This document shows positions 9,012 through 28,345 of a stretch of DNA of 64,000 nt, piece by piece. How positions within the stretch are numbered: position 1 is the first letter of the stretch; each line of letters begins with the position of its first letter. The stretch spans positions 1 through 64,000 of the forward strand of contig JAFXQR010000033.1 of the NCBI GenBank assembly GCA_017526985.1. The letters run 5' to 3'. The notes beneath the pieces were generated by a model. It saw only the letters and a program-made list of their open reading frames with translations, made no database searches and was not told where the DNA came from. A program made the translations under genes and the position numbers. Source of the DNA: Lachnospiraceae bacterium (GTDB lineage: Bacteria; Bacillota; Clostridia; Lachnospirales; Lachnospiraceae).

Positions 9012-9075
9012 CACCAAAAACGGGTGGTTTTTGCAAATATCGGTCGATTATCTCCCAAGATATTAAAGATAAGAC

Positions 9076-9147
9076 TGTTTCGTGCGGGAATCGAACCCAC
9101 ATTTACTCTTTAGGGGAGAGTTGTCTTTTCCATTCGACGAACGAAAC
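9076..9147 (-). tRNA. tRNA-Arg(CCT)
   Basis: Seven-base-pair acceptor GTTTCGT/ACGAAAC, T-loop TTCGATT, anticodon loop CCCCTAA giving CCT, with C instead of the near-universal T at position 33. No CCA encoded. Last tRNA of array 1. Confidence 0.82.
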
Positions 9148-9154
9148 ATTTTCG

Positions 9155-9215
9155 CATTCATGATACGATTCGAACGTGCAATAATTGGCTGGTTTCTCCA
9201 TTAACCTACAGGAAC
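9155..9215 (-). pseudogene. tRNA remnant lacking the anticodon arm
   Basis: D-arm (GGTT/AACC) and T-loop TTCGAAT are clear and a largely complementary acceptor can be drawn, but only 11 bases separate the D and T arms, so the anticodon arm is missing. Most likely a decayed tRNA gene. Confidence 0.5.
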
Positions 9216-9243
9216 AGGCTGCTAAAAGTTTAAAAGCAGATCG

Positions 9244-9316
9244 TGCGTACAGGAGGATTCGAACCTCCGACCACCTGTGTATCAGACAGGTACGCTGCCA
9301 ACTGCGCCATGTACGC
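9244..9316 (-). tRNA. tRNA-Ile(GAT)
   Basis: Complete cloverleaf: acceptor GCGTACA/TGTACGC, discriminator A, anticodon loop CTGATAC, T-loop TTCGAAT. No CCA encoded. Confidence 0.92.
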
Positions 9317-9367
9317 ATATTGGTTATCTAAAACTCATATTAAAATGCAGCTTTAGATAAGCCATAG

Positions 9368-9441
9368 TATCTGTGACCGGATTCGAACCGGTAATCTACG
9401 GTTTAGAAGACCGTTGCATTCATCCGTTATGCTACACAGAT
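9368..9441 (-). tRNA. tRNA-Arg(TCT)
   Basis: Complete cloverleaf: acceptor ATCTGTG/CACAGAT, anticodon stem ACGGT/ACCGT with loop CTTCTAA, T-loop TTCGAAT. Confidence 0.92.
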
Positions 9442-9445
9442 ATAG

Positions 9446-9517
9446 CATCCCCGGGGCGACTCGAACGCCCATTATCTGGTTCGTAGCCAGGCGGTCTCTC
9501 CTTTGGCCTACGGGGAC
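9446..9517 (-). tRNA. tRNA-Arg(ACG)
   Basis: Acceptor GTCCCCG/CGGGGAT, anticodon loop CTACGAA, T-loop TTCGAGT. ACG would read CGU/CGC, probably after A34-to-inosine editing by the host. Confidence 0.9.
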
Positions 9518-9520
9518 ATA

Positions 9521-9592
9521 CAGGCCACGAACGATTCGAACGCTCATCGTACGGTTTTGGAGACCGACAGGATACCATTACCCCAGTGACCT
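9521..9592 (-). tRNA. tRNA-Trp(CCA)
   Basis: Acceptor AGGTCAC/GTGGCCT, discriminator G, anticodon loop CTCCAAA, T-loop TTCGAAT. One of two tRNA-Trp genes in array 1. Confidence 0.9.
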
Positions 9593-9605
9593 ATGTATTG
9601 TTTTA

Positions 9606-9677
9606 CAGGCGATAAAGGATTCGAACCTCTATCTACCGGGTCAGAGCCGGTCGTACTCACCCTTATACTAATCGCCT
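9606..9677 (-). tRNA. tRNA-Gln(CTG)
   Basis: Acceptor AGGCGAT/ATCGCCT, anticodon stem ACCGG/CCGGT with loop CTCTGAC, T-loop TTCGAAT. Confidence 0.92.
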
Positions 9678-9681
9678 ATAA

Positions 9682-9816
9682 CGCCACAGGAGGGATTTGA
9701 ACCCACATACCCTTTCAGGCTGTCTGCTTTCGAGGCAGGTGCTCTTTTCGGGAAATCTTCGATTTCCTTATCGCACTCCCTATGGAAGTTTGGAACACCA
9801 GTTGAGCGACTGCGGC
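9682..9816 (-). tRNA. tRNA-Ser(CGA) with a 48-nt insertion in the D-loop
   Basis: Acceptor GCCGCAG/CTGTGGC, discriminator G, anticodon loop CTCGAAA, long variable arm and T-loop TTCAAAT identify a serine tRNA. The D-stem halves GCTC and GAGC are separated by a structured insert (9748-9795), making the gene 135 nt instead of about 87. If the insert were removed the D-loop would be of normal size. Confidence 0.75.
9748..9795 (-). repeat. family A hairpin element, copy 1 (in tRNA-Ser)
   Basis: 48 nt built as TTCCAA, stem ACTTCC/GGGAGT with an ATA loop, GCGATAAG, stem GAAATC/GATTTC with a GAA loop, CCGA. Two other copies have the same fixed segments but different, still complementary, stems. Confidence 0.75.
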
Positions 9817-9823
9817 ATATTAG

Positions 9824-9895
9824 AGACGATAGAGAGATTCGAACTCTCGGCCACGGAGTTGCAGTCCGCCCCCTTAACCACTTGGGTATATCGTC
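9824..9895 (-). tRNA. tRNA-Cys(GCA)
   Basis: Acceptor GACGATA/TATCGTC, discriminator T typical of tRNA-Cys, anticodon loop CTGCAAC, T-loop TTCGAAT. Confidence 0.9.
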
Positions 9896-9902
9896 ATTAT
9901 TA

Positions 9903-10025
9903 AGACATCGACGGGGTGCTGGATGTCCGGTAGACATCCGTTTAGCACCGACCGAAGCGGAGCGTAGACCGAACCCGCAACTCCGGTTTTGCAGACCGGC
10001 AACTTCACCATTTATCTACGATGTC
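9903..10025 (-). tRNA. tRNA-Cys(GCA) with a 51-nt T-loop insertion
   Basis: Acceptor GACATCG/CGATGTC, discriminator T, anticodon stem CCGGT/ACCGG with loop CTGCAAA. The T-stem GCGGG/CCCGT is intact, but the loop between its arms is 58 nt instead of 7. The extra sequence contains nested complementary segments (GGTGCT/AGCACC enclosing GGATGTC/GACATCC). The gene is 123 nt long. Confidence 0.75.
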
Positions 10026-10027
10026 TA

Positions 10028-10112
10028 CGCCGCCGGTAGGAATCGAACCTACGGCCCTGCAAAGGACTACAGTTTTCAAGACTGCTCTCCACGCCAACTG
10101 GAGATCAACGGC
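10028..10112 (-). tRNA. tRNA-Ser(TGA)
   Basis: Acceptor GCCGTTG/CGGCGGC, discriminator G, anticodon loop CTTGAAA, long variable arm, T-loop TTCGATT. Confidence 0.9.
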
Positions 10113-10117
10113 ATATC

Positions 10118-10207
10118 CGACGGTGAGTGGACTTGAACCACTACAGCGCTTTCACGCTTACTTACGGTTTAGCAAACCGCTGCCTTACCAATTAGGCTTA
10201 CACCGCC
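10118..10207 (-). tRNA. tRNA-Ser(GCT)
   Basis: Acceptor GGCGGTG/CACCGTC, discriminator G, anticodon loop TTGCTAA, long variable arm, T-loop TTCAAGT. Confidence 0.9.
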
Positions 10208-10208
10208 A

Positions 10209-10256
10209 TTCCAAACCCACGAAGTGGGTGCGACAAGGATTTGGAACAAATCCCGA
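10209..10256 (+). repeat. family A hairpin element, copy 2 (intergenic, plus strand)
   Basis: 48 nt between two tRNA-Ser genes, in opposite orientation to them: TTCCAA, perfect stem ACCCAC/GTGGGT with a GAA loop, GCGACAAG, perfect stem GATTTG/CAAATC with a GAA loop, CCGA. Confidence 0.75.
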
Positions 10257-10260
10257 TCAA

Positions 10261-10351
10261 CGACGCCGGGTGGATTCGAACCACCACACCGGTTTTCCCG
10301 ATTACTCTCCGCCTTCCAAGCGGATGCCTTGCCAATTAGGCTTACAGCGCC
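10261..10351 (-). tRNA. tRNA-Ser(GGA)
   Basis: Acceptor GGCGCTG/CGGCGTC, discriminator G, anticodon stem TCCGC/GCGGA with loop TTGGAAG, long variable arm, T-loop TTCGAAT. Confidence 0.9.
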
Positions 10352-10375
10352 ATTTCTATATTTTCAAACCTTTCA

Positions 10376-10447
10376 CAGGGGTAACGAGATTCGAACTCAT
10401 AATACCGGCGTCAAAGACCGGTGCCTTGACCGTTTGGCGATACCCCT
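10376..10447 (-). tRNA. tRNA-Gln(TTG)
   Basis: Acceptor AGGGGTA/TACCCCT, discriminator G, anticodon loop CTTTGAC, T-loop TTCGAAT. Confidence 0.92.
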
Positions 10448-10450
10448 ATA

Positions 10451-10523
10451 CAGGCGCAACAGGATTCGAACCCGTACTTGTGGTTTTGGAGACCACCGTG
10501 CTTGCCGTTGACACTATACGCCT
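10451..10523 (-). tRNA. tRNA-Trp(CCA)
   Basis: Acceptor AGGCGTA/TGCGCCT, discriminator G, anticodon stem GTGGT/ACCAC with loop CTCCAAA, T-loop TTCGAAT. First tRNA after the XRE gene. Confidence 0.9.
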
Positions 10524-10540
10524 ATTTTAAGTTGAGCGAT

Positions 10541-10765
10541 CTACTGCTCGTTTACTACTACAAGTTCATCCATTGTGGTCTTTGTGAGTTTCGCCAGAAC
10601 CACCAGGTTATCCAAAGCCGGCAGGTTCTCACCATTGATCCACTTGTAGACCGGGTACGGGGATGCAAAACCAAACATCTTTGCTACATCCTTTACGGTC
10701 ATACCGTTTTTCTTTATGGTTTCTTTTATCTTAAGCCCGGTGGCTGTCAAATCTATTGTTATCAT
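10541..10765 (-). CDS. XRE-family HTH regulator
   Basis: A 74-residue single-domain helix-turn-helix protein: VKDVAKMFGFA (helices 1-2) and YPVYKWINGENLPALDNLV (recognition helix and following turn), ending LTKTTMDELVVVNEQ. The start at ATG 10765 is set by GAAGGAGCGG a few bases upstream. It lies between the attenuator at 10793-10982 and tRNA array 1 in one transcription unit, so it would be controlled together with the tRNAs and could repress its own promoter. A paralogue (28000-28227) is attached to array 4. Confidence 0.88.
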   Translation of the reverse strand: MITIDLTATGLKIKETIKKNGMTVKDVAKMFGFASPYPVYKWINGENLPALDNLVVLAKLTKTTMDELVVVNEQ

Positions 10766-10792: not shown

Positions 10793-10828
10793 AAAAACCG
10801 CTTATCCTAATTTCCTTAAGACAAGCGG
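10793..10828 (-). terminator. attenuator terminator of array 1 (regions 3 and 4)
   Basis: Minus-strand stem CCGCTTGTC / GATAAGCGG followed by TTTTTC, between the leader ORF and the XRE gene. Its 5' arm (10816-10827) is perfectly complementary over 12 bases to 10883-10894 inside the leader ORF, giving a competing antiterminator. Confidence 0.82.
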
Positions 10829-10862
10829 CCAACTTCTTTCTATGATCGGAGTATTATTATGG

Positions 10863-10982
10863 TTAATATATACCCCCGGTATCGCTTGTCTTAATTTCAC
10901 GCCAAATAGACCACTGGATCTGTCTGTCACAGCGGCTGCAAATCGAACTTTGTGAAATTGTAACAAGCATCATTGTGTTCAT
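10863..10982 (-). CDS. array 1 leader peptide (39 aa)
   Basis: ATG at 10982 with an AGAGGAAAGGATAAA Shine-Dalgarno region, stop at 10863. Residues 9-30 contain 5 Ile, 5 Ser, 3 Gln, 3 Arg, 2 Cys and 2 Trp (20 of 22), exactly the amino acids of the downstream array. The codons cover the four Ser tRNAs (TCA, TCG, TCT, AGT/AGC), both Gln tRNAs (CAA, CAG) and Arg AGA plus CGN. The ORF overlaps both strands of alternative RNA pairings: GCTTGT (10963-10968) can pair with ACAAGC in the antiterminator segment 10883-10894. It is read here as an attenuation leader whose translation is the signal; the peptide itself is probably not functional. Confidence 0.8.
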   Translation of the reverse strand: MNTMMLVTISQSSICSRCDRQIQWSIWREIKTSDTGGIY

Positions 10983-11059
10983 TGCATTTTATCCTTTCCT
11001 CTTATAATTTTCCTTTTACAAGGGACGCTACTCTGGGGCTTTCGTAATCTTATACTACT

Positions 11060-11088
11060 ATTATCGGCTATTTTATCCGATCCGTCAA
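11060..11088 (-). promoter_or_regulatory. sigma-A-type promoter of array 1
   Basis: TTGACG, a 17-bp spacer, then GATAAT on the minus strand. A good housekeeping promoter, unlike the phage motif used by most protein genes. Transcription would begin about 70 bp before the leader ORF. Confidence 0.72.
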
Positions 11089-14958: not shown

Positions 14959-16002
14959 TTACTCTTCGTTCTTCAGCAGATACTTATTGCTTACCACCTT
15001 CATGGATAAGGATCCGCCGATCCGCTTGCTGAATACCGGCTCGACAGGCCGGATCACAATGCCTTCCTTACGGCCGCCATTCGGATATTCTCCGTCTGCC
15101 CTTGCAAGAAGAGCATCCACAGTCGGGTACTTGGACGGAAGATCCGTATCTACTTCTTCGATCGGTACCATATTTAAGCTCAGTTCCGTACAAATCTCCT
15201 GCATCTTACGCAGTCCAACACGCTTTCCGTTTACACGCACGGTAAATACATACCATTCCGGTCTTGTTAACTTCAAACGGTTCTTCTGAATCCCAGGTGC
15301 GCAAAACTCGCCCTGAATTGTAAATAACTGCAGACCGTTTCTCTTTGCGTAATCCGTTACCTTTTCCTCGATTCCGTCACGCTTCACCAGTTCATAGAAA
15401 CCGCTGGTACCATCGTTCTTGTATTCGTAGTTATGTCCGGTTACATGGAAACCATCCGCGTCAACCGATACCGAATGCGAAGAACCGTCCATCTTGGTAC
15501 TGATATAGTATTCCAGTCCGGCAAACTCACCGATCAGTTCCGGATCCGCCTGTACTCTGGTTTCATCTGTCTTCGGTACATCCATAGGCAGTGTTCCGAT
15601 GATCGTGCCGCCGCTGGATGCTGCCTCTTCGATCTCCCACTTCTTTACCCCGAGCAGTTCGGATACATCCGTACCAATTTCAATGCCTTGTGCAATTTCC
15701 GAAAATGCGGTGATCGGAAGCAAAAGTCCCTGGGATACCTGCCCCCGAAACTTCATGGTCCGCAAACGGAAGCCCTCTCCCATAAGATCCGTCTTGCGGT
15801 AACTGTTGCTCCGCAGAAACTCAAACTCTGCACGAACCGGAAGGAAACTATCGATCTCAAAGTAGACCGCCTTATCTCCGGCCTGCATCTGTCCTTTATT
15901 AACTACACACTGCCAGCCGAGAACATGAGCCAGTTCAATCTTGTCGGCTCCTTCGATCGGCTCGACACTTATCACACTCTGAATACTTGCTAACTTTCTC
16001 AT
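14959..16002 (-). CDS. RNA ligase, DraRnl (Rnl5) family
   Basis: 347 residues. N-terminal OB-like domain (residues 1-100), then an adenylyltransferase domain with the nucleotidyl-lysine motif STKMDGSS (K170), QGEFCAPG, GRKEGIVIRP and SMKVVSNKYL. This layout matches the Deinococcus Rnl5-type ligase, which seals nicks with a 3'-OH RNA end. With the T4 Rnl1-like enzyme at 33635, the CCA-adding enzyme and the tRNA arrays, a role in repairing or joining tRNA is the natural inference. It follows the HNH gene closely and precedes the phosphatase gene in one run. Confidence 0.92.
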   Translation of the reverse strand: MRKLASIQSVISVEPIEGADKIELAHVLGWQCVVNKGQMQAGDKAVYFEIDSFLPVRAEFEFLRSNSYRKTDLMGEGFRLRTMKFRGQVSQGLLLPITAFSEIAQGIEIGTDVSELLGVKKWEIEEAASSGGTIIGTLPMDVPKTDETRVQADPELIGEFAGLEYYISTKMDGSSHSVSVDADGFHVTGHNYEYKNDGTSGFYELVKRDGIEEKVTDYAKRNGLQLFTIQGEFCAPGIQKNRLKLTRPEWYVFTVRVNGKRVGLRKMQEICTELSLNMVPIEEVDTDLPSKYPTVDALLARADGEYPNGGRKEGIVIRPVEPVFSKRIGGSLSMKVVSNKYLLKNEE

Positions 16003-16503: not shown

Positions 16504-16528
16504 CACAGATTGCGTTACACTGCGATAA

Positions 16529-16599
16529 TTGCGGGAGCCGGATTCGAACCGGCGTATCTGGGATATGAGCCCAGCAAGGTGCCTCTCCTTAATCCCGCG
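16529..16599 (-). tRNA. initiator tRNA-fMet(CAT)
   Basis: All three initiator marks are present: mismatched first pair (C1 against A72), three G:C pairs at the base of the anticodon loop (CTGGG/CCCAG, loop CTCATAT), and A11:T24 in the D-stem. T-loop TTCGAAT. No CCA encoded. Confidence 0.9.
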
Positions 16600-16607
16600 A
16601 TAATATT

Positions 16608-16689
16608 GACCAGGTGGATTTCTACCACATCTTTCTGGCTTTCCAGAGAACGAGACACATCCGGCGTTTGCCATTTCGCCACTTTCCCA
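16608..16689 (-). pseudogene. degenerate Leu-like tRNA
   Basis: A Leu-type D-arm (TGGCGAAATGGCAAACGCC), a variable-arm hairpin (TCTGG/CCAGA) and a T-arm with an odd TAGAAAT loop are visible, but the anticodon arm is two bases short and the acceptor does not pair well. Confidence 0.4.
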
Positions 16690-16760
16690 AGCCCCCAGCC
16701 GGATTCGAACCAGCATACACTGCTTACAAGGCAGTAGTCCTACCATTAGACGATGGAGGC
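16690..16760 (-). tRNA. tRNA-Thr(TGT)
   Basis: Acceptor GCCTCCA/TGGGGGC, anticodon stem ACTGC/GCAGT with loop CTTGTAA, T-loop TTCGAAT. The only Thr tRNA in the window. Confidence 0.9.
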
Positions 16761-16881
16761 ATAGGATCAATGAAGCAGATACCATTGATCCATGAGGCCC
16801 ATAAATTGATTTATATTCCGCACCAAAGGTGTTTAACACCGCCAATCCGTCGATTGTCTGCATGGCCATCTGTGCGGTTAT

Positions 16882-17060
16882 TGTGAGGGTAAGGATTTGC
16901 ACCTTACATAGTGTTCATGTCACGACTTTGGAGTTGATTGCATTCATCCATTATAGTAACACCTTACGTTCTTTCGCTAGTACCTGCTGCAATTCGGTTG
17001 CTAGTTACTTGCCCGTTCCTGTTTACGGGACTAAGCGTCTACCTTTTTCCGCCACCTCAC
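16882..17060 (-). tRNA. possible interrupted Leu-type tRNA
   Basis: The 5' part has GTGAGG and a textbook Leu D-arm (TGGCGGAAAAAGGTAGACGC). About 120 bases on lie a variable-arm hairpin, a T-arm with loop TGCAAAT and the complementary CCCTCAC. Taken together they would form one class II tRNA carrying about 90 extra bases in the anticodon region. The anticodon cannot be read with confidence; two unrelated remnants are also possible. Confidence 0.35.
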
Positions 17061-17077
17061 GATTTGTTAACTTGTTT

Positions 17078-17212
17078 TTATGCTGCCTGCTGCTCTACGA
17101 TCTCAAAATACTCTTCAGAGATATCGTAGTTTTCAAGCAGATCTTCTTTGTTTTCTGCCTGGCAGGTATATACGCTGCCATCCTGCCTACTTGTGCAGAT
17201 ATAAGTCTTCAT
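17078..17212 (-). CDS. 44-aa hypothetical protein within array 2
   Basis: ATG at 17212 with GGTGGTGAAAG upstream. It starts MKTYICTSRQDGSVYTC and has an acidic C-terminal half (YDISEEYFEIVEQQAA). No family recognised. Its composition does not match the neighbouring tRNAs, so it is not read as a leader peptide. Confidence 0.55.
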   Translation of the reverse strand: MKTYICTSRQDGSVYTCQAENKEDLLENYDISEEYFEIVEQQAA

Positions 17213-17256
17213 TACTTTCACCACCTTTTTTAATGCTCATACCATACTTTGCTTCA

Positions 17257-17329
17257 TCGGAGTGGCGGGACTCGAACCCACGGCATCGTGATCCCAAATC
17301 ACGCAGTCTACCAACTGACTTACACCCCG
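17257..17329 (-). tRNA. tRNA-Pro(TGG)
   Basis: Acceptor CGGGGTG/CACTCCG, anticodon stem CGTGA/TCACG with loop TTTGGGA, T-loop TTCGAGT. Confidence 0.92.
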
Positions 17330-17574
17330 ATAACGGCATCCCACCGTCAAAGGGCTATCACATGCGTAACCTGTTACGCCTTATAGCGATCTGTCGGTAT
17401 AGCCTTACCGCCACATACTACTTCCTTTTCGGGAAAACAGAATTCCTTGCCTTTTATCACTTGTACTTGGTGCGTATTATGACAAGTTCATCTGAGCTGT
17501 TTAAGGTTGCCATCCTACAAGCGTTTCCCGACTACTCACCCGAGCGGCGAACACTTGCGAAAACTCGTAAGGTC
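17330..17574 (-). other. structured gap without a clear gene
   Basis: No convincing gene. The minus strand holds a compact foldable segment: outer stem GGCTAT/ATAGCC (about 17353-17404) enclosing the hairpin GCGTAAC/GTTACGC. The rest is unassigned. Confidence 0.35.
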
Positions 17575-17648
17575 TGAGATGGACAAGATTCGAACTCGCA
17601 ATCTATTCCCAATACTGAGGATCATTTTACCAATTAAACTACCATCCC
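17575..17648 (-). tRNA. tRNA, anticodon uncertain (possibly GTA)
   Basis: Acceptor GGGATGG/CCATCTC and T-loop TTCGAAT are good. The anticodon stem is short (TCCT/GGGA) with loop CAGTATT, which would read GTA but has A at position 33 and no long variable arm as expected for tRNA-Tyr. Confidence 0.6.
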
Positions 17649-17670
17649 ATTCTGTAAACCTCACGCCTCG

Positions 17671-17744
17671 TGGAGCATAAGGGATTTGAACCCTTGACCC
17701 CCTGCTTGCAAGGCAGGTGCTCGTCCCAACTGAGCTAATGCCCC
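17671..17744 (-). tRNA. tRNA-Ala(TGC)
   Basis: Acceptor GGGGCAT/ATGCTCC, discriminator A, anticodon loop CTTGCAA, T-loop TTCAAAT. Confidence 0.92.
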
Positions 17745-17854
17745 ATATTTTGGGTTTAGGCCAGCTTTCTCCCAGCTCGGAGTCGAACCGGTCTCTATCT
17801 TTCGATAGCATCCCACCACAGGACCAGCCAGGATACTAACTAACCATGCCCAAA

Positions 17855-17928
17855 CGACCTCGACGGGATTTGAACCCGCGACCCTCTGCGTGACAGGCAG
17901 GCATTCTAACCAACTGAACTACGAGGCC
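17855..17928 (-). tRNA. tRNA-Asp(GTC)
   Basis: Acceptor GGCCTCG/CGAGGTC, discriminator G, anticodon loop CTGTCAC, T-loop TTCAAAT. First tRNA of array 2. Confidence 0.92.
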
Positions 17929-18008
17929 GATAATATTTTCAATGTTCGAACAACAATATCCCACAAGGGGATTTTCTTCAAAGACGCTGATATTCATCAG
18001 CTTTCCTT

Positions 18009-18102
18009 CGTACTAAGGTTTCAAAAGACGAAACCTAAGTTCTCAGTTATCCTGCTGGATTCCTATGTACTAAGGTTTGAAAATACCAAACCTAAGTACA
18101 TA
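18009..18102 (-). promoter_or_regulatory. tandem hairpin leader of array 2
   Basis: Just downstream of the promoter motif at 18104-18127 the transcript would fold into a 17-bp hairpin (arms CTATGTACTTAGGTTTG and CAAACCTTAGTACATAG, one mismatch), followed 30 bases later by a second copy with an 11-bp stem (ACTTAGGTTTC/GAAACCTTAGT). The repeats share sequence. Role unknown; 5'-end protection or a processing signal is possible. Confidence 0.6.
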
Positions 18103-18103
18103 G

Positions 18104-18127
18104 TTATATGAAAAATAATATTTCACC
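18104..18127 (-). promoter_or_regulatory. phage promoter motif of array 2
   Basis: A consensus copy (GGTGAAATATTATTTTTCAT then ATAA) on the minus strand, upstream of tRNA array 2. Confidence 0.75.
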
Positions 18128-18129
18128 AG

Positions 18130-18624
18130 TTATTTACTGATCTTATCAGCAATACTGGATGCTGCGTAACTGTACGGCTTGCATTTTGCTTCAAAGCCGC
18201 AGGCTTTGATCCATCCGACCAGCCCAGGGATCAACTCTTTTGTTTTTCCTTTATCGCTCCATCCGGCATCCACATGGATAGATAAAAGAGTGTTCTCCCG
18301 CATCTTCTTATATTTGCTTTCTTCATCCAGTTCGCCAACCAGGTTCATCATAACTTCCAGAGACCTGGATGTTTCGGTATTCAGCTTCTGCTTTACATTT
18401 GTGATCCGGTCGATCCGGTCGATCTCATAAAAGAAGATTCCACCGTGTCCCTCTTTGTACGCTGCGATTACCGTAACCATCTTGGTATCATTAAAGTTCT
18501 GGCTGTCCGTTCCAACAACGATCTGGAACACGCCATCTGTATTTTTATTCTTGTCGTAAAATTCCAGGATCTTATCCGGTATCTGCTCGATATTCAGTTT
18601 TCCGTATGTTTCACTCTGGAACAT
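18130..18624 (-). CDS. DUF458/YkuK-like RNase H-fold protein, copy 2
   Basis: 164 residues, start MFQSETYGKLNIEQIPDKI, closely similar to the product of 12683-13177 along the whole length, including FQIVVGTDSQNF and LLSIHVDAGWSDKGKT. A GGAAAAGAG ribosome site precedes the ATG at 18624. The gene shares a transcript with the tRNA-Lys(TTT) just upstream, so the two would be expressed together. Confidence 0.82.
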   Translation of the reverse strand: MFQSETYGKLNIEQIPDKILEFYDKNKNTDGVFQIVVGTDSQNFNDTKMVTVIAAYKEGHGGIFFYEIDRIDRITNVKQKLNTETSRSLEVMMNLVGELDEESKYKKMRENTLLSIHVDAGWSDKGKTKELIPGLVGWIKACGFEAKCKPYSYAASSIADKISK

Positions 18625-18653
18625 CTCTTTTCCTTCTTTTACTGTAAATTTAC

Positions 18654-18726
18654 TGCGCCTGACGGGATTCGAACCCATGACCCTTCGATTAAAAGTCGAA
18701 TGCTCTACCTACTGAGCTATAGGCGC
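18654..18726 (-). tRNA. tRNA-Lys(TTT)
   Basis: Acceptor GCGCCTA/CAGGCGC (last pair mismatched), discriminator A, anticodon stem TTCGA/TCGAA with loop CTTTTAA, T-loop TTCGAAT. Encoded immediately upstream of the DUF458 gene. Confidence 0.88.
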
Positions 18727-18748
18727 ATATTTTTCATCATTATATCTA

Positions 18749-18774
18749 TATATGAGAGCAGCGATTTTCTGCGT
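18749..18774 (-). repeat. family B hairpin element (leader of tRNA-Lys)
   Basis: Minus-strand GGACGCAG, 7-base spacer, CTGCTCTC, directly downstream of the promoter motif at 18779-18804. Related copies lie at about 22070-22092 and inside two tRNA T-loops. Confidence 0.6.
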
Positions 18775-18778
18775 CCAT

Positions 18779-18804
18779 AGATATATGAAAAATAATATTT
18801 AACC
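18779..18804 (-). promoter_or_regulatory. phage promoter motif
   Basis: Minus-strand consensus copy (GGTTAAATATTATTTTTCAT then ATATCT), driving tRNA-Lys(TTT) and the DUF458 gene. Confidence 0.75.
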
Positions 18805-18834
18805 ATTATGGAGCTCGTATTCTCCTTTTGATCA

Positions 18835-18920
18835 AATGTGTGGACGGATTTGCACCGTCGTCTCTTCGCATTGCGGTTTAGCCTGGGATTCGGCGTGTTT
18901 TCCTACGAAACTACACACAT
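18835..18920 (-). tRNA. tRNA-like gene, isotype unknown
   Basis: Acceptor ATGTGTG/CACACAT, D-stem GTTT/AAAC and T-arm GACGG/CCGTC with loop TGCAAAT are clear, but the 36 bases between the D and T arms do not fold into a normal anticodon arm. It may be degenerate or carry an insertion. Last gene of array 3. Confidence 0.45.
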
Positions 18921-18934
18921 ATAATAGTTCCCAA

Positions 18935-19039
18935 TCGGTAGAGCAGGATTCGAAAGCAGCTTCGCTGCGTCCTTAACCTGCGAACCTTTCGGAACGGTTT
19001 TACAGACCGTCGCCTTTGACCACTTGGCTATATCTACCG
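18935..19039 (-). tRNA. tRNA-Tyr(GTA) with a 22-nt T-loop insertion
   Basis: Acceptor CGGTAGA/TCTACCG, discriminator A, anticodon stem ACGGT/ACCGT with loop CTGTAAA, variable arm present. The T-stem GCAGG/CCTGC encloses T, then a 22-nt insert (18951-18972), then TCGAAT. The insert is a family B hairpin (GGACGCAGC, GAA, GCTGCT). Confidence 0.78.
18951..18972 (-). repeat. family B hairpin element (in tRNA-Tyr T-loop)
   Basis: GACGCAGC / GCTGC hairpin with a GAA loop inserted after the first T of the T-loop. Approximate limits. Confidence 0.6.
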
Positions 19040-19043
19040 TAAC

Positions 19044-19130
19044 TCCCCCTCCTGAGAATCGGACTCAGCAGTGTCCATTACGACAGCGGGATTTACAGTC
19101 CCGCCCGCAGCCATTGCGGTCTAAAGGGGG
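19044..19130 (-). tRNA. tRNA-Tyr(GTA)
   Basis: Acceptor CCCCCTT/GAGGGGG, discriminator A, anticodon loop CTGTAAA, long variable arm, T-loop TCCGATT (C at position 55). Its 5' end abuts the stop codon of a Tyr-rich mini-ORF. Confidence 0.88.
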
Positions 19131-19169
19131 TTAATAATAATCAGTTTTCTCGTAATAATAGCTTTCCAT
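19131..19169 (-). CDS. Tyr-rich mini-ORF before tRNA-Tyr
   Basis: Twelve codons, MESYYYEKTDYY, with AAGGAG 11 bases before the ATG. Five of 12 residues are Tyr. The stop codon ends one base from tRNA-Tyr(GTA), and a second tRNA-Tyr follows. It is read as a cognate-codon leader peptide; no terminator is visible here. Confidence 0.6.
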   Translation of the reverse strand: MESYYYEKTDYY

Positions 19170-19240
19170 TTATTTTTTTTCTCCTTATGGTTCTATGATC
19201 TGCATTAGCGCCTGTAATACAGATCGATATATTGTTTTAG

Positions 19241-19314
19241 AGTGGATAGCGGGATTTGAACCCGTACCTGCGACATGGCAAGCCGCTATGCTAACCGTTA
19301 AACACCATACCCAC
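19241..19314 (-). tRNA. tRNA-Gly(GCC)
   Basis: Acceptor GTGGGTA/TATCCAC, discriminator T, anticodon stem GCGGC/GTCGC with loop TTGCCAT, T-loop TTCAAAT. Confidence 0.88.
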
Positions 19315-19343
19315 ATTTTTGTCAAAACACATATTGTACATAA

Positions 19344-19366
19344 GCGGTCCGGAGTCGAACCAGCTC
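19344..19366 (-). pseudogene. tRNA T-arm fragment
   Basis: An isolated T-arm-like hairpin (loop TTCGACT) directly after tRNA-Lys(CTT), with no matching 5' half. Confidence 0.35.
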
Positions 19367-19371
19367 TTCAA

Positions 19372-19443
19372 TGCCTGTGACAGGATTCGAACCTGCAGCC
19401 AGACGATTAAGAGTCGCCTGCTCTACCATTGAGCCACACAGAC
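19372..19443 (-). tRNA. tRNA-Lys(CTT)
   Basis: Acceptor GTCTGTG/CACAGGC, discriminator A, anticodon stem GGCGA/TCGTC with loop CTCTTAA, T-loop TTCGAAT. Confidence 0.9.
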
Positions 19444-19488
19444 GCACATAAACTTATTTTGTTTATGCAGATGATTGCTCATCTCTAC

Positions 19489-19560
19489 TGCGTCTGACAG
19501 GATTCGAACCTGCGATATACGGGTTAAAAGCCCGTTGCCATACCACTTGGCTACAGACGC
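19489..19560 (-). tRNA. tRNA-Lys(TTT)
   Basis: Acceptor GCGTCTG/CAGACGC, discriminator A, anticodon stem ACGGG/CCCGT with loop CTTTTAA, T-loop TTCGAAT. Preceded by a Lys-rich mini-ORF. Confidence 0.92.
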
Positions 19561-19564
19561 ATAT

Positions 19565-19615
19565 CTATGTTTTCTTGTCGCACTTATCGGGATTTCGTTT
19601 CTGTTTTCGTTTCAT
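19565..19615 (-). CDS. Lys-rich mini-ORF before tRNA-Lys
   Basis: Sixteen codons, MKRKQKRNPDKCDKKT, with an AGAGAGG ribosome site eight bases upstream of the ATG. Six residues are Lys and two Arg. The stop lies 4 bases before tRNA-Lys(TTT), and tRNA-Lys(CTT) follows. It is read as a cognate-codon leader peptide. Confidence 0.58.
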   Translation of the reverse strand: MKRKQKRNPDKCDKKT

Positions 19616-19644
19616 TATACATACCTCTCTCTGTTTTAACTTAA

Positions 19645-19718
19645 TACGCAGAGATGGAATCGAACCATCGGCGTTAACGTGTATAAGACGTATCCCTTCA
19701 CCACTTGGGTATCTGCGC
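19645..19718 (-). tRNA. tRNA-Ile(TAT)
   Basis: Acceptor GCGCAGA/TCTGCGT, anticodon loop CTTATAC giving TAT, T-loop TTCGATT. Reads AUA directly without needing lysidine-modified CAT. Confidence 0.85.
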
Positions 19719-19722
19719 ATAT

Positions 19723-19801
19723 TGGTGGCTGTCAGATTCGAACTGACTCCGCAACGGTTGCATCCGTTCTTTTTCCATTCCGGTGCGTCCACCAGACCAC
19801 C
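19723..19801 (-). tRNA. tRNA-like gene, possibly Cys(GCA)
   Basis: Acceptor GGTGGTC/AGCCACC with one mismatch, T-arm GTCAG/CTGAC with loop TTCGAAT. The anticodon stem AACGG/CCGTT has a six-base loop ATGCAA containing GCA, and the D-arm is abnormal (GGTG/CACC hairpin). Function doubtful. Confidence 0.5.
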
Positions 19802-19807
19802 AACATC

Positions 19808-19903
19808 AGTGGATAACGGGATTTGTGAGCGGTGCTCTTCCGCGTCTTTAACCCGCATAAGCTGTCTGGCAGGCAGCTATGCTAACCATTGCATCATATC
19901 CAC
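19808..19903 (-). tRNA. tRNA-Gly(GCC) with a 25-nt T-loop insertion
   Basis: Acceptor GTGGATA/TATCCAC, discriminator T, anticodon loop CTGCCAG. The T-stem GCGGG/CCCGT encloses T, a 25-nt insert holding a family B hairpin (AGACGCGG, 7 bases, CCGCTCA), then CAAAT. Confidence 0.75.
19824..19849 (-). repeat. family B hairpin element (in tRNA-Gly T-loop)
   Basis: GACGCGG / CCGCT hairpin inserted in the T-loop. Approximate limits. Confidence 0.6.
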
Positions 19904-19906
19904 ATA

Positions 19907-19978
19907 AGCACGATACGGGGTTTGAACCCGCTCCCCCAGTTTGGAAGACTGGTATGCAGCCAATTACACCTATCGTGC
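19907..19978 (-). tRNA. tRNA-Gly(TCC)
   Basis: Acceptor GCACGAT/ATCGTGC, discriminator T, anticodon stem CCAGT/ACTGG with loop CTTCCAA, T-loop TTCAAAC. Confidence 0.92.
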
Positions 19979-20050
19979 ATAGGGGAGGGAAGTGCCTTTC
20001 TTAACTCCCCATATGAAATTTTAATGTACTTTGCAGATTACTCTGCAGTA

Positions 20051-20123
20051 TCACTCCGGGGAGATTTGAACTCCTCGTTTCCGGCTTGAGAGGCCGGCGT
20101 CCTCACCGTTAGACGACGGAGCG
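20051..20123 (-). tRNA. tRNA-Glu(CTC)
   Basis: Acceptor CGCTCCG/CGGAGTG, discriminator A, anticodon stem CCGGC/GCCGG with loop CTCTCAA, T-loop TTCAAAT. Confidence 0.9.
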
Positions 20124-20128
20124 ATTCG

Positions 20129-20201
20129 CACCCGGTAGGAGGCTCGAACTCCTATCTGCACCTTGAAAGGGTGCTATCCTCACCTGTTAGAAGAACCGGG
20201 C
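20129..20201 (-). tRNA. tRNA-Glu(TTC)
   Basis: Acceptor GCCCGGT/ACCGGGT, discriminator G, anticodon stem GCACC/GGTGC with loop CTTTCAA, T-loop TTCGAGC. Confidence 0.9.
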
Positions 20202-20267
20202 ATTACATGACGCTTTTAGGTTTATGTTTAACAGACATATCCTTATAGATTGCTGTAAGCGTCACAA

Positions 20268-20341
20268 TTGCAGGGACGGGATTTGAACCCGCAATCTTCG
20301 GGGTATGAACCCGACATGTTTGCCAGTTACACTACCCTGCG
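20268..20341 (-). tRNA. tRNA-Met(CAT)
   Basis: Anticodon stem TCGGG/CCCGA with loop TTCATAC, T-loop TTCAAAT, discriminator A. It has a C1/A72 mismatch as in initiators but T11:A24 as in elongators; most likely an elongator or a mixed form. Confidence 0.82.
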
Positions 20342-20345
20342 ATAG

Positions 20346-20416
20346 TAGCGGGTACGGGATTTGCACCCGTGTCTTCAGGTTATGGGCCTGACAAGGAACT
20401 ACTCCTCTAACCCGCA
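20346..20416 (-). tRNA. tRNA-Met(CAT), unusual
   Basis: Acceptor TGCGGGT/ACCCGCT with a T1/T72 mismatch, A11:T24 in the D-stem, anticodon loop CCCATAA with C33, T-loop TGCAAAT. Some initiator-like traits but no three G:C pairs. It could also be a CAT-type Ile tRNA. Confidence 0.7.
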
Positions 20417-20417
20417 A

Positions 20418-20489
20418 TCGAAAGCGCCGGACTCGGACCGTTCCTCTCCCTTCCGACGGGAGTATGCAAACCCTTACACTTCGCTCTCG
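20418..20489 (-). tRNA. tRNA-Pro(CGG)
   Basis: Acceptor CGAGAGC/GCTTTCG, discriminator A, anticodon stem CTCCC/GGGAG with loop GTCGGAA. The T-stem is weak and the T-loop is TCCGAGT. Confidence 0.75.
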
Positions 20490-20604
20490 TGGTGGCACCC
20501 CAACCGTTCATGACACGGCGACTCTGCAGAGATTTAAGGGTGCTAACCTTAGCCTAAACATACTTGCCATGCACGTTCGTTTTCAAGCAGCTAAGGTATT
20601 TTCG

Positions 20605-20677
20605 TCGGAATGACAGGACTTGAACCTGCAACCTCATGATCCCAAATCACGCATGCTACCAATTGCACCACATCCCG
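20605..20677 (-). tRNA. tRNA-Pro(TGG)
   Basis: Acceptor CGGGATG/CATTCCG, discriminator A, anticodon loop TTTGGGA, T-loop TTCAAGT. Second Pro(TGG) gene in the window. Confidence 0.92.
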
Positions 20678-20682
20678 ATATG

Positions 20683-20754
20683 ATTCTCGCCCTCTAAAAC
20701 TTACAAAACTCAGCACCCGTCAGGATGTGCCACACCAAAGTGTGCCAGCGAGAA
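20683..20754 (-). pseudogene. degenerate tRNA
   Basis: A perfect acceptor TTCTCGC/GCGAGAA at normal tRNA distance (72 nt) with a D-like and an anticodon-like hairpin (GCAC/GGTGC), but no recognisable T-arm. Confidence 0.4.
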
Positions 20755-20794
20755 GAGATTTAGCATGGTACCCTGCCTTATCTCAGTTTTAGCG

Positions 20795-20867
20795 TACCGA
20801 CAGAGGGATTTGAACCCACAACTTCCTCCTTGTAGGGGAGGCACTCTCCCGGTTGAGTTATGCCGGT
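20795..20867 (-). tRNA. tRNA-Val(TAC)
   Basis: Acceptor ACCGGCA/TGTCGGT, discriminator A, anticodon stem CCTCC/GGAGG with loop CCTACAA (C33), T-loop TTCAAAT. Confidence 0.85.
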
Positions 20868-20871
20868 ATAT

Positions 20872-20998
20872 TGCAGTCAGACAACCGAATGTCTATGTGA
20901 ACGGTTTCTTCTGAGGTGCGACCTCATACTTCCCCTTGGTGATGTTCACCTACCTACCCCATATAGGCCTGTCCCTTTGGACATCGACTGCATTTTTG
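20872..20998 (-). ncRNA. structured spacer RNA in array 3
   Basis: The spacer before tRNA-Val can fold into nested stems on the minus strand: TGCAGTC/GACTGCA at the ends, GATGTC/GACATT inside, then GTGAAC/GTTCAC, with the hairpin GAGGT/ACCTC. Two short ORFs overlap it. Role unknown. Confidence 0.35.
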
Positions 20999-21044
20999 AC
21001 TGCACCTTAAACTCCGCACCACCAGAATATCTGGTGCAACCAAG

Positions 21045-21117
21045 TGGAATCGGTGGGAGTTGAACCCGCTACCCTCTGCTTGCAAGGCAGATGCTCTACC
21101 AGTTGAGCTACGACCCC
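21045..21117 (-). tRNA. tRNA-Ala(TGC)
   Basis: Acceptor GGGGTCG/CGATTCC, discriminator A, anticodon loop CTTGCAA, T-loop TTCAACT. Confidence 0.92.
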
Positions 21118-21326
21118 ATATTTTTGTACCGATAGCCCTCGCTATGGAATTTATTGCCCGTGTCCCGAATAGAACGGGATCCTCACTTTGGCCGTCGCAC
21201 AGGGCTTTTTACGCAAGTAGCGAACTTACGGCTCGGTTTTTGTTCCGACGAGCTCTTTTCGGAACCGCCGGTATTGCAATACCGGCAGCCAACCTCACAA
21301 CCCCATAACAACGGTTATCGATACAA
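21118..21326 (-). other. hairpin-rich spacer in array 3
   Basis: No tRNA of normal form. Contains a perfect 20-base palindrome (GCCGGTATTG and its complement), hairpins GTTCCG/CGGAAC and GTAAGT/ACTTGC, and an isolated T-arm (TCCCG/CGGGA, loop TTCTATT). An Ala-rich reading frame of about 28 codons crosses it but lacks a convincing start. Confidence 0.4.
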
Positions 21327-21399
21327 TGCCTCGTATTGGTGTCGGACCAATCTCTTCTGCTCTTCAGGCAGGCGCTGTCACCGGTTCAGCTGACGAGGC
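21327..21399 (-). tRNA. tRNA-Phe(GAA)
   Basis: Acceptor GCCTCGT/ACGAGGC, discriminator A, anticodon loop CTGAAGA, T-arm ATTGG/CCAAT with loop TCCGACA. Confidence 0.87.
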
Positions 21400-21549
21400 T
21401 GGGAAAAGTCAGAATCTGCTTCTCCCGTACTAAATCGTTTGTTCATTTTTCAATGTTCGTCCTTTCGAATTTTTCTTGCTTTTTTTTTCGCTCCGCAGGT
21501 GCCTGTTCTGCAGAGCCGGTATCTATTTTATTATTGTGGCTTTCGCCAG

Positions 21550-21622
21550 CTCCTCCGACAGGACTTGAACCTGCGACAAGACGGTTAACAGCCGCCTGCT
21601 CTACCAACTGAGCTACAGAGGA
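21550..21622 (-). tRNA. tRNA-Asn(GTT)
   Basis: Acceptor TCCTCTG/CGGAGGA, discriminator G, anticodon stem GGCGG/CCGTC with loop CTGTTAA, T-loop TTCAAGT. First tRNA of array 3, nine bases after the terminator. Confidence 0.92.
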
Positions 21623-21630: not shown

Positions 21631-21663
21631 AAAAAATGGGAGCCGGTTCTCTTTTTCGGCTCC
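21631..21663 (-). terminator. attenuator terminator of array 3
   Basis: GGGAGCCG / CGGCTCCC stem followed by ATTTTTT on the minus strand, between the 58-codon leader ORF and tRNA-Asn. The 5' arm can alternatively pair with CGG...CCC at 21736-21744 inside the leader ORF, a weaker candidate antiterminator. Confidence 0.75.
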
Positions 21664-21701
21664 CACAAAAGAAACTATGTTGCTTTTCGCATCATATCCT
21701 T

Positions 21702-21878
21702 CTATGTTCGCCTATCCCTTTCTTCCTTATTTGTCGGGTATCCGGGGGTCGCATTTTTGGCATCAAAAACATAACCGGCTTTTACATAATCGGCTACAAA
21801 TCCAGCGCACACAAAACCAGACTGCCCCTGCAGTGCGGTATTTGCAATATTCATTTGTGTGGTTATAGACTGTAACAT
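21702..21878 (-). CDS. array 3 leader peptide (58 aa)
   Basis: ATG at 21878 with AAGGTAAAGCAA upstream, stop at 21702. Residues 21-53 contain 5 Ala, 4 Gly, 4 Val, 3 Phe, 3 Tyr, 3 Lys, 2 Asn, 2 Pro, 2 Glu and 1 Cys (29 of 33), all amino acids of array 3, and no Leu, Ser, Arg, Gln, His, Trp or Ile. The first 20 residues do not follow the pattern. It lies between the phage promoter motif at 21926 and the terminator at 21631. It is read as an attenuation leader; it could instead be a small protein of unknown function. Confidence 0.65.
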   Translation of the reverse strand: MLQSITTQMNIANTALQGQSGFVCAGFVADYVKAGYVFDAKNATPGYPTNKEERDRRT

Positions 21879-22118: not shown

Positions 22119-22135
22119 TTATTTGCATAAAAAAA

Positions 22136-22182
22136 TGGGAAGTGCTTCGCTCACATCAAAATGTGAAGGACAGGCACTTCCC
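22136..22182 (-). terminator. intrinsic terminator
   Basis: GGGAAGTGC / GCACTTCCC stem with an inner CACAT/ATGTG hairpin, followed on the minus strand by seven T residues. It insulates array 3 from transcription coming from the right. Confidence 0.75.
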
Positions 22183-22228
22183 TCTGATCATCATAATACA
22201 ACATAGCGCCAACGATGTCAACGGTTTT

Positions 22229-28227: not shown

Positions 28228-28264
28228 TGTCTTATCTCCTGTTGCTTTGCCAATTACTGTTCCG

Positions 28265-28338
28265 TACCCCCTGTGGGATTCGAACCCACACCGTACCGGG
28301 CTTAAACCGGATGCCTCTGCCAGTTGGACCAAGGGAGC
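28265..28338 (-). tRNA. tRNA-Leu(TAA), short variable arm
   Basis: Acceptor GCTCCCT/AGGGGGT, anticodon loop TTTAAGC, T-arm GTGGG/CCCAC with loop TTCGAAT. The variable region is only about five bases, unlike normal bacterial tRNA-Leu. Confidence 0.78.
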
Positions 28339-28345
28339 AGATCAG

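What the first reader, a model, noticed from the sequence alone, without database searches (positions are those of the whole stretch)
10793..11088. tRNA array 1 is preceded by a complete transcription attenuator whose leader peptide encodes the array's own amino acids
Seen directly: a sigma-A-type promoter, a 39-codon ORF with a good ribosome site, and a terminator. Residues 9-30 of the peptide are 20 of 22 from Ile, Ser, Gln, Arg, Cys and Trp, exactly the set carried by the array 1 tRNAs, including the rare Trp and Cys twice each. The Ser codons sample all four tRNA-Ser genes and the Gln codons both tRNA-Gln genes. Region 2 (10883-10894) is perfectly complementary over 12 bases to the terminator 5' arm (10816-10827), and region 1 (10963-10968) to region 2. 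By analogy with trp/his attenuators, ribosome stalling from lack of any of these charged tRNAs would allow readthrough into the XRE gene and tRNAs. A phage attenuator that senses several amino acids at once and outputs tRNA genes is, to my knowledge, undescribed.
Basis: partly seen in the sequence, partly recalled or inferred. Interest (0 to 1): 0.97.

Follow-up and report, generated by a model that had tools for sequence, protein, structure and literature searches.

The report
Leader peptides mirroring their tRNA cargo
Plasmid-like DNA in a gut bacterium carries three groups of tRNA genes, and just ahead of each lies a short reading frame with a stretch rich in the amino acids that its own tRNAs carry, followed by a hairpin that looks like a transcription stop signal: likely a switch that would turn the tRNA genes on when ribosomes run short of those very tRNAs.

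Summary
All reported parts of array 1 are at the stated coordinates. The window's other two tRNA arrays also have a leader ORF and terminator directly before the first tRNA: array 3 (Leu, His) NLHTALLLHLLL, array 2 (13 amino acids) AGFVADYVKAGYVFDAKNATPG. Together the arrays carry all 20 amino acids. The pattern recurs in relatives (Gln/Cys/Phe/Lys/Asn array: NKQFNNKQFKQFCKKQK) and in cultured Ruminococcus albus 7, plasmid pRUMAL01 (Leu/Glu: ESLLSLVLESEE; Asp/Gln/Cys/Phe/Trp: YDDYQCFFSFSFDWQD; Tyr/Ser: FSYSYSYSS). Antiterminator pairing beats shuffles at array 1, the Leu/His and QCFKN families and R. albus A and B; not in the large-array family or R. albus C. One relative's leader (G032) does not fit its broken-off array. 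No T-box was found at the leaders scanned. The contig looks like a conjugative plasmid, not a phage. Best explanation: ribosome-mediated transcription attenuation sensing loss of any tRNA that the operon carries. Readthrough on stalling is inferred; no expression data were seen. Closest known case: the Anabaena megaplasmid trn operon, controlled by a protein repressor. A new variant of a known kind, directly testable.

The parts
11060..11088 (-). array 1 promoter-like site TTGACG-17-GATAAT
   Evidence: 10 of 12 consensus matches
10993..11002 (-). ribosome-binding-like AGAGGAAAGG before leader 1
10863..10982 (-). leader ORF 1, 39 aa; residues 9-30 are 20 of 22 I/S/Q/R/C/W
10963..10968 (-). region 1 (6 bp to region 2, weak)
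10883..10894 (-). region 2, antiterminator strand TTAAGACAAGCG (codons 30-34)
10816..10827 (-). region 3, terminator 5' arm CGCTTGTCTTAA
10793..10828 (-). terminator 1
10541..10765 (-). XRE-family (HTH_3) gene between terminator 1 and the tRNAs
9075..10524 (-). tRNA array 1: Trp, Gln, Ser, Cys, Arg, Ile (12 called, plus Ser-CGA 9680-9818 and a second Cys read by eye)
22193..22221 (-). array 2 promoter-like site TTGACA-17-TATTAT
   Evidence: 11 of 12
22129..22182 (-). conserved 5' hairpin with T run between promoter and leader 2
21702..21878 (-). leader ORF 2, 58 aa; residues 25-46 are 22 of 22 from the array 2 set
21699..21713 (-). region 2 of leader 2 (AGGCGAACATAGAAG; encodes the conserved RRT-stop end)
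21658..21671 (-). region 3 of leader 2
21631..21664 (-). terminator 2, 8 bases before the first tRNA
16528..21622 (-). tRNA array 2: Asn, Phe, Ala, Val, Pro, Met, Glu, Gly, Ile-TAT, Lys, Tyr, Asp, Thr
29001..29029 (-). array 3 promoter-like site TTGTAA-17-TATAAT
   Evidence: 10 of 12
28972..28984 (-). ribosome-binding-like AAAGGAAAAAAGG before leader 3
28865..28969 (-). leader ORF 3, 34 aa, 9 of 12 residues Leu/His at NLHTALLLHLLL
28935..28945 (-). region 1 of leader 3
28886..28894 (-). region 2 of leader 3
28821..28829 (-). region 3 of leader 3
28807..28833 (-). terminator 3, 12 bases before the first tRNA
28264..28794 (-). tRNA array 3: Leu-CAG, Leu-CAA, Leu-AAG, His, Leu-TAA (plus an interrupted Gly-TCC 28421-28549)
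28000..28227 (-). XRE paralogue directly downstream of array 3
14959..16002 (-). RNA ligase (PHA02142 OB-fold + RNA_ligase), downstream of array 2

Best explanation
Each of the window's three tRNA operons opens with a promoter-like site, a short leader ORF with a stretch rich in the amino acids of that operon's own tRNAs, and a terminator-like hairpin placed just before the tRNA (or xre-tRNA) genes, an arrangement predicted to work as a ribosome-mediated transcription attenuator in which a ribosome held up for lack of any of those tRNAs would let the end of the ORF pair with the terminator's 5' arm and likely allow readthrough into the tRNA genes. Shown: the parts, their positions, the composition match at several leaders that differ in the matching stretch, in-frame conservation, and for three leader families (and two R. 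albus leaders) a complementarity beyond codon-order shuffles. Inferred: that the ORFs are translated, that stalling changes termination, and that the purpose is to replace tRNAs that have been depleted or cut. Feeding back on tRNA supply makes more sense as a response to missing tRNA than to missing amino acid, because new tRNA genes do not cure an amino-acid shortage. A CCA-adding/poly(A)-polymerase family enzyme, two RNA ligases and a peptidyl-tRNA hydrolase in the same window fit a tRNA upkeep kit.
For: (1) All three arrays of the window have leader + terminator directly before the first gene; 8 and 12 bases lie between terminator and first tRNA of arrays 2 and 3. (2) Composition: W1 0 of 1434 other ORFs match at sizes 16 and 22; W3 1 of 1435 at size 12; QCFKN leader 0 of 1435 ORFs of the window's contig; R. 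albus leaders 1, 1 and 0 of 1031 at sizes 12, 12 and 8. Window sizes were picked after seeing the leaders; other sizes give larger counts (W3 7, 39, 112; R. albus A 70, 3, 9; B 18, 1, 2; C 1, 24, 75). The true pairing of leaders with arrays is the best of all 120, 720 and 120 permutations for three sets. (3) Array contents and leaders partly change together: G1c57 has no Val or Thr tRNA called and no V or T in its leader core, G31 with both has 3 V and 1 T; G24 has no Gln tRNA called before its contig ends and 1 Q in the leader, G15 has two Gln tRNAs and 4 Q. (4) Antiterminator complementarity: shuffles reaching the observed duplex energy 9, 4, 5, 2, 1 and 2 of 2000 for W1, W3, G1c57LH, G31LH, G15, G24, 7 and 3 of 1000 for R. 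albus A and B. (5) In the truncated-transcript model a ribosome on the control codons favours the antiterminator and one over the end of the ORF does not, for most of 14 leaders (exceptions under evidence against). (6) Indels inside the Leu/His ORF are multiples of 3, after the stop not; pN/pS below 1 in 27 of 28 pairs, which are not independent. (7) No T-box or other cis-regulatory family at the leaders scanned. (8) Stress induction of a megaplasmid tRNA operon is a known physiology (PMC10272220, abstract and passages).
Against: No expression or ribosome data. At equilibrium with the full terminator present the terminator wins at nearly all ribosome positions; the switch needs co-transcriptional kinetics. 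In the large-array family the antiterminator duplex is no better than shuffles (140 to 644 of 2000 reach it, four leaders tested), and without a ribosome the model antiterminates. G24 switches only for early codons, W1 drops to 0.2-0.5 at some control codons, and for W1 and W3 the antiterminator returns with the ribosome at the stop codon (0.49 and 0.86). The ribosome model gives no clean switch for R. albus A, B or C, and R. albus C complementarity is not significant (99 of 1000). By a crude whole-peptide score the own array is the best column in only 4 of 12 rows, and W2, G1c104big and G32big do not beat random peptides (273, 419 and 2769 of 3000 reach them). Within the large-array family the match is imperfect: G31's leader core has 2 A and 2 G and G1c104's has 2 G, 2 P and 1 W without such tRNAs called, W2's has no I despite Ile-TAT. 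G32's leader does not fit its array; that array breaks off inside a tRNA beside a chromosomal-type gene, a reading made after the fact. By eye no leader-plus-terminator unit was recognised before arrays of B. breve pMP7017, Anoxybacillus, Bacillus phage Mater or viral contigs L003, L010, L026, although single ORFs at the first two and at L003 reach 13 to 16 of 16 of their sets.
Confidence: 0.82

Rival explanations
1. The leaders act as attenuators of amino-acid or charging status in general (starvation sensors of the trp/his kind), and the tRNA genes are just the regulated cargo; the signal is uncharged rather than missing tRNA.
For: The architecture is that of amino-acid attenuators; a leucine-rich attenuator peptide is known in a Gram-positive (PMC5794164, title and abstract start in a search listing).
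Against: Making more tRNA does not relieve amino-acid shortage; tRNA repair or upkeep enzymes (two RNA ligases, a CCA-adding/poly(A)-polymerase family enzyme, PTH2) sit in the same window, but this is circumstantial.
Confidence: 0.3
2. The short ORFs are translated small proteins or pieces of the XRE regulatory circuit; the composition match is chance, and the terminators insulate the arrays from upstream genes.
For: XRE genes lie in or beside arrays 1 and 3, the G015, G024 and Leu/His arrays and R. albus A and B; W2-type matches are individually weak.
Against: Leaders that differ in the matching stretch fit their own arrays, strongly for W1, G15, Leu/His and the three of R. albus, and the match partly follows array content within a family.
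Confidence: 0.08
3. Regulation is mainly by the linked XRE repressors at the promoters, as TrcR does for the Anabaena trn operon; the leader-terminator only sets a basal level.
For: XRE genes are linked to many of these arrays; TrcR precedent, though a ribbon-helix-helix protein (PMC10272220).
Against: Does not explain the amino-acid match of the leaders; the XRE search found only the copies at arrays 1 and 3 on the window's contig, and R. albus C has none between leader and tRNAs.
Confidence: 0.2

Closest known systems
trp/his/ilv-type ribosome-mediated transcription attenuators (recalled; S. aureus leucine-rich attenuator peptide PMC5794164 seen in a search listing)
   Same: Short translated-looking leader with control codons, antiterminator and terminator that exclude each other, genes right after the terminator
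   Different: Output is tRNA genes, not biosynthetic enzymes; one leader faces from 2 up to about 16 amino acids; several operons on one element divide the 20 amino acids among themselves
Anabaena trn operon / TrcR (PMC10272220; abstract and passages seen)
   Same: 26 tRNA genes on a megaplasmid, silent normally, induced by translational stress
   Different: Control there is a ribbon-helix-helix repressor at the promoter; words beginning leader, attenuat or terminator do not occur in its main text
Phage and plasmid tRNA arrays as anti-defence (PMC11555353, PMC10264068, PMC12803027; passages seen)
   Same: tRNA genes on mobile elements thought to replace tRNAs attacked by host defence
   Different: No 'leader' or 'attenuat' in their main texts; the phage SP15 tRNA uses a strong promoter
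T-box riboswitches (mechanism recalled)
   Same: Sense tRNA charging to control termination in Firmicutes
   Different: Bind one uncharged tRNA directly; no T-box match at the leaders scanned

Membership tests
ribosome-mediated transcription attenuator | short leader ORF with ribosome-binding site after a promoter | tested here: met
   in-frame conservation; translation itself not shown
ribosome-mediated transcription attenuator | control codons for the amino acids tied to the regulated genes | tested here: met
   strong for W1, G15, Leu/His, R. albus; weak one by one for large-array leaders; not met for G32 (broken-off array)
ribosome-mediated transcription attenuator | intrinsic terminator between leader and first regulated gene | tested here: met
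ribosome-mediated transcription attenuator | antiterminator pairing exclusive with the terminator | tested here: inconclusive
   beyond shuffles for W1, Leu/His, QCFKN, R. albus A and B; not for the large-array family nor R. albus C
ribosome-mediated transcription attenuator | protective 1:2 helix when untranslated | tested here: inconclusive
   P(2:3) of naked RNA 0.00-0.08 for three Leu/His relatives, G15 and G24, but 0.95 for W1, 0.77 for W3 and 0.94-1.00 for the large-array leaders
ribosome-mediated transcription attenuator | stalling at control codons raises readthrough | not testable with these tools
   needs a reporter or RNA-seq; ribosome-position model only
T-box riboswitch | T-box covariance model match in the leader | tested here: not met
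bacteriophage genome | structural or packaging genes on the contig | tested here: inconclusive
   10 proteins scanned, no convincing head/packaging hit (one Hoc-like hit at E 0.0006; one RNA ligase hit is filed under tail); two conjugation coupling proteins and ParA. Not every ORF was scanned

The most novel reading that the evidence does not exclude
A mobile element carries a self-tuning tRNA replacement system: its tRNA genes are split into operons that together carry all 20 amino acids, and each operon has an attenuator whose interchangeable sensor cassette lists the same amino acids, so that loss of any one tRNA (for example by a host tRNA-cutting defence) switches on exactly the operon that replaces it. 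The antiterminator chassis stays while the sensor stretch is rewritten as tRNA genes are gained or lost.
Probability: 0.5. Interest if true: 0.95.

Novelty: new variant of a known kind. Interest (0 to 1): 0.9.

Why it matters
How silent tRNA arrays on plasmids and phages are switched on, and by what signal, is mostly open. These leaders name the likely signal in the sequence: each lists the tRNAs whose loss it would detect. It would be an OR-gate sensor of translation damage built from one small ORF, readable by eye, portable as a reporter for tRNA depletion, and testable in a cultured strain (R. albus 7). It would also give a simple sequence rule for predicting which tRNAs a mobile element expects to lose.

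Tried and rejected
T-box or another riboswitch: none at gathering score at the leaders scanned; the two weak hits near array 1 are meaningless families. Full-length equilibrium folding as a test of switching: terminator wins at nearly all positions. First ribosome model with a 60-base 5' end cut a hairpin in the large-array leaders; redone from the predicted start for 13 of the 14 leaders, while W2 kept a 60-base 5' end. Leader relatives in viral contigs: none for the large-array and QCFKN alignments (Leu/His and leader 1 not searched there); in phages no match for the one Leu/His leader tried. RNA-ligase relatives in viral contigs (26 loci): few tRNAs and no leader-plus-terminator unit recognised by eye at the six loci looked at. 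XRE as a marker in viral contigs: one partial hit, then none. In plasmids the XRE hits were R. albus 7 and 33 Ligilactobacillus salivarius records; the one L. salivarius record opened has no tRNA in 16.2 kb. Family-wide searches with the leader alignments (250 genomes each, nearly one per genus) found the window itself or nothing. Paenibacillus thiaminolyticus plasmid: two tandem similar ORFs and a terminator before a 27-tRNA array, left as a lead.

Literature: searches (open PMC library only); 'tRNA array' with 'leader peptide' 0 papers, 'phage-encoded tRNA' with 'leader peptide' 0 papers. A description in a subscription journal or preprint would not have been found.

Full report
What is there. 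The window is bases 1-64000 of a 118,621-base contig (G000:C105). Its genus includes G031, whose contig matches in length and leader a named sheep-rumen Lachnospiraceae MAG. ARAGORN tRNA genes, all on the minus strand, in three arrays: array 1 Trp, Gln, Ser, Cys, Arg, Ile; array 2 thirteen amino acids; array 3 Leu and His. Their union is all 20 amino acids. ARAGORN finds none in the remaining 54.6 kb of the contig.

Array 1. The stretch ISQSSICSRCDRQIQWSIWREI is 20 of 22 from the array's six amino acids; none of the other 1434 ORFs of the contig reaches that. The 12-base complement between ORF codons 30-34 and the terminator's 5' arm is matched in run length by 2 of 2000 codon-order shuffles. 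The terminator lies between the leader and the xre-tRNA genes.

Arrays 2 and 3. The prediction that other arrays should have their own matching leaders holds. Array 3 (Leu, His): MNNFRSNNLHTALLLHLLLNEQVSFAVQNTGSGK, 12 bases between terminator and first tRNA. Array 2: MLQSITTQMNIANTALQGQSGFVCAGFVADYVKAGYVFDAKNATPGYPTNKEERDRRT, 8 bases. For array 3, 1 of 1435 ORFs reaches 9 of 12 Leu/His; for array 2 the set is large (background 72%) and 21 of 1434 ORFs reach 22 of 22, so that match is weak alone. Window lengths were chosen after seeing the leaders; the counts for all lengths tried are.

Relatives. A search with the array XRE in 35 genomes of the genus and with leader alignments gave more. G015: array Gln, Cys, Phe, Lys, Lys, Gln, Asn, leader MYYAIINKQFNNKQFKQFCKKQKGFVNYANCKLVESGPGYVRR; G024: array Phe, Lys, Asn, Met up to near the contig end, leader MYYVSINKQFNSKNEKRFKNNKRLVCYANCKLVESGPGLNH. 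G001 C57, G001 C104 and G031: large arrays with leaders similar to leader 2, each also with a Leu/His leader before Leu/His genes; in G031 and G001 C104 it sits inside the array, so sub-arrays have their own leaders. Incomplete cases: G024 C55, G030, G032 C188 and G001 C290 are cut by contig ends; G029's array is mostly gone, with one tRNA called; G032 C299's array stops inside a tRNA beside a chromosomal-type gene and its leader does not fit what is left.

Ruminococcus albus 7. The array XRE also matches pRUMAL01 (58% identity), a complete plasmid of a cultured strain of another family. Its main tRNA cluster has three leader-terminator units (L101 coordinates): 19519-19647, MNKFTVSYLYSESLLSLVLESEETSFVLRTDKVDEHFGISCF, before Leu-CAA, Leu-TAA, xre, Glu; 21016-21153, MNSIMNNTVVRSYDDYQCFFSFSFDWQDEGLFVLHTNTGNCSVQR, before xre, Asp, Gln, Cys, Phe, Gln, Trp; 22183-22275, MKNTVFAFSYSYSYSSVVQKNKARLAMREC, before Tyr and four Ser. 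One full and one sub-threshold tRNA match lie elsewhere on the plasmid. Other ORFs in 90 kb reaching the match: 1, 1 and 0 of 1031. TTG...-17-TATAAT sites precede all three. Leaders A and B share with the Leu/His leaders a C-terminal F-V/A-L/M/V-x-T/N-like stretch that encodes region 2 and a similar terminator, while the stretch before it differs and follows the array: a constant antiterminator chassis with an exchangeable sensor is suggested by these short alignments, not proven.

Tests of the match. One representative per family: the true pairing of leaders with arrays scores best of 120, 720 and 120 permutations in three choices, the third with the misfit G032. Against random peptides of contig composition: W1 0, G15 0, G1c57big 3, Leu/His leaders 6 to 33, G24 23, G31big 43, W2 273, G1c104big 419, G32big 2769 of 3000. 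Own array was the best column in 4 of 12 rows, as larger sets absorb mismatches. Within the large-array family the leader core partly follows the array: V and T counts are 4 and 3 in W2, 3 and 1 in G31, 1 and 1 in G1c104, whose arrays have Val and Thr tRNAs, but 0 and 0 in G1c57, where neither was called; R, Q, S, W are 1, 2, 1, 0 in W2 (no such tRNAs in array 2) and 2, 2, 4, 2 in G1c57 (all present). Against: G31 has 2 A and 2 G, and G1c104 2 G, 2 P and 1 W, without such tRNAs called; W2 has 1 C without Cys and no I with Ile-TAT; G32 has 0 T with Thr. Val in G31 and G1c104 rests on tRNAs with an insertion, called by Rfam but not by ARAGORN.

RNA switching. In a model where the transcript ends before the terminator's 3' arm and a ribosome masks 17 bases behind and 10 ahead of the A-site codon's first base, the antiterminator probability is high with the ribosome on the control codons and falls to about zero over the end of the ORF for most of the 14 leaders modelled. 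Exceptions: G24 switches only for early codons; W1 shows 0.2-0.5 at some control codons, and W1 and W3 recover the antiterminator at the stop codon (0.49, 0.86); the large-array leaders antiterminate without any ribosome. R. albus A and B do not show a clean switch. In seven of seven large-array leaders the purines read between CAT and G in region 2 match the T run of region 3 in number (3 with 3, 4 with 4), but the 3/3 group is closely related, so this may be one event. Indels inside the Leu/His ORF are in frame and those after the stop are not; pN/pS is below 1 in 27 of 28 pairs.

What carries it. Two T4SS-DNA_transf proteins, ParA and a PIF1-like helicase speak for a conjugative plasmid; R. 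albus pRUMAL01 is typed mobilizable. The window also encodes a CCA-adding/poly(A)-polymerase family enzyme, two RNA ligases, and a PTH2 peptidyl-tRNA hydrolase.

How it likely works. Normal tRNA supply: the ribosome runs to the end of the leader, masks region 2, the terminator forms and tRNA genes stay off. Loss of any listed tRNA: the ribosome stalls in the sensor stretch, region 2 pairs with region 3, the polymerase reads through. Every step after 'the sequence has these parts' is inferred. Physiological precedent: the Anabaena trn operon on a megaplasmid is silent and induced by translational stress, through the repressor TrcR (PMC10272220, abstract and passages). Phage tRNAs can rescue infection from tRNA-cutting defences (PMC11555353, passages). 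I found no paper describing leader peptides for tRNA arrays in the library searched.

Noticed in passing
window 28421-28549, 9680-9818; L066 7357-7479, 8545-8664; L068 3860-3979, 4657-4777, 4985-5104; L074 10990-11111; L090 12040-12159: tRNA genes carry a recurrent insertion of about 45-60 bases with two hairpins (like AAACCCCCGAAGGGGGTGCGATAAGG..CC..CGAAAA), mostly in the anticodon loop, once in the D loop, and once in reversed orientation in the variable loop; not called by ARAGORN (positions read by eye). Mobile mini-repeat or a tiny intron (the element has two RNA ligases).
   Followed up: partly
window 8888, 11566, 16445, 18104, 18781, 21927, 22095, 29457, 29797, 31319, 32230, 36983, 39452, 49361, 60453: Motif TGAAATATTATTTTTCATATAA, 15 sites with up to 3 mismatches on both strands against 0 in 100 shuffles; perhaps an element-wide promoter or operator.
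   Followed up: partly
window 22129-22182 and upstream of the large-array leaders in L066, L067, L068, L089, L090, L091: A hairpin GGGAAGTG...CACTTCCC (with small changes) followed by a T run lies between promoter and leader, like a second terminator; its role is unknown.
   Followed up: partly
L108 (Paenibacillus thiaminolyticus plasmid) upstream of the 27-tRNA array at 3533: Two tandem similar ORFs of 84-90 codons (GRFK..FI..LYSK) and a terminator-like hairpin right before the array; a possible leader covering most amino acids.
   Followed up: no
L090 11400-12300: tRNA array of G032 breaks off inside a tRNA and continues into a chromosomal-type gene: integration or assembly junction.
   Followed up: partly
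window 18130-18678 and 12683-13219; L090 11450-11990: RNaseH_like gene (PF04308 for 18130-18678) inside array 2, with a similar second copy in the window and a similar gene in a relative's array (the last two judged by eye).
   Followed up: no
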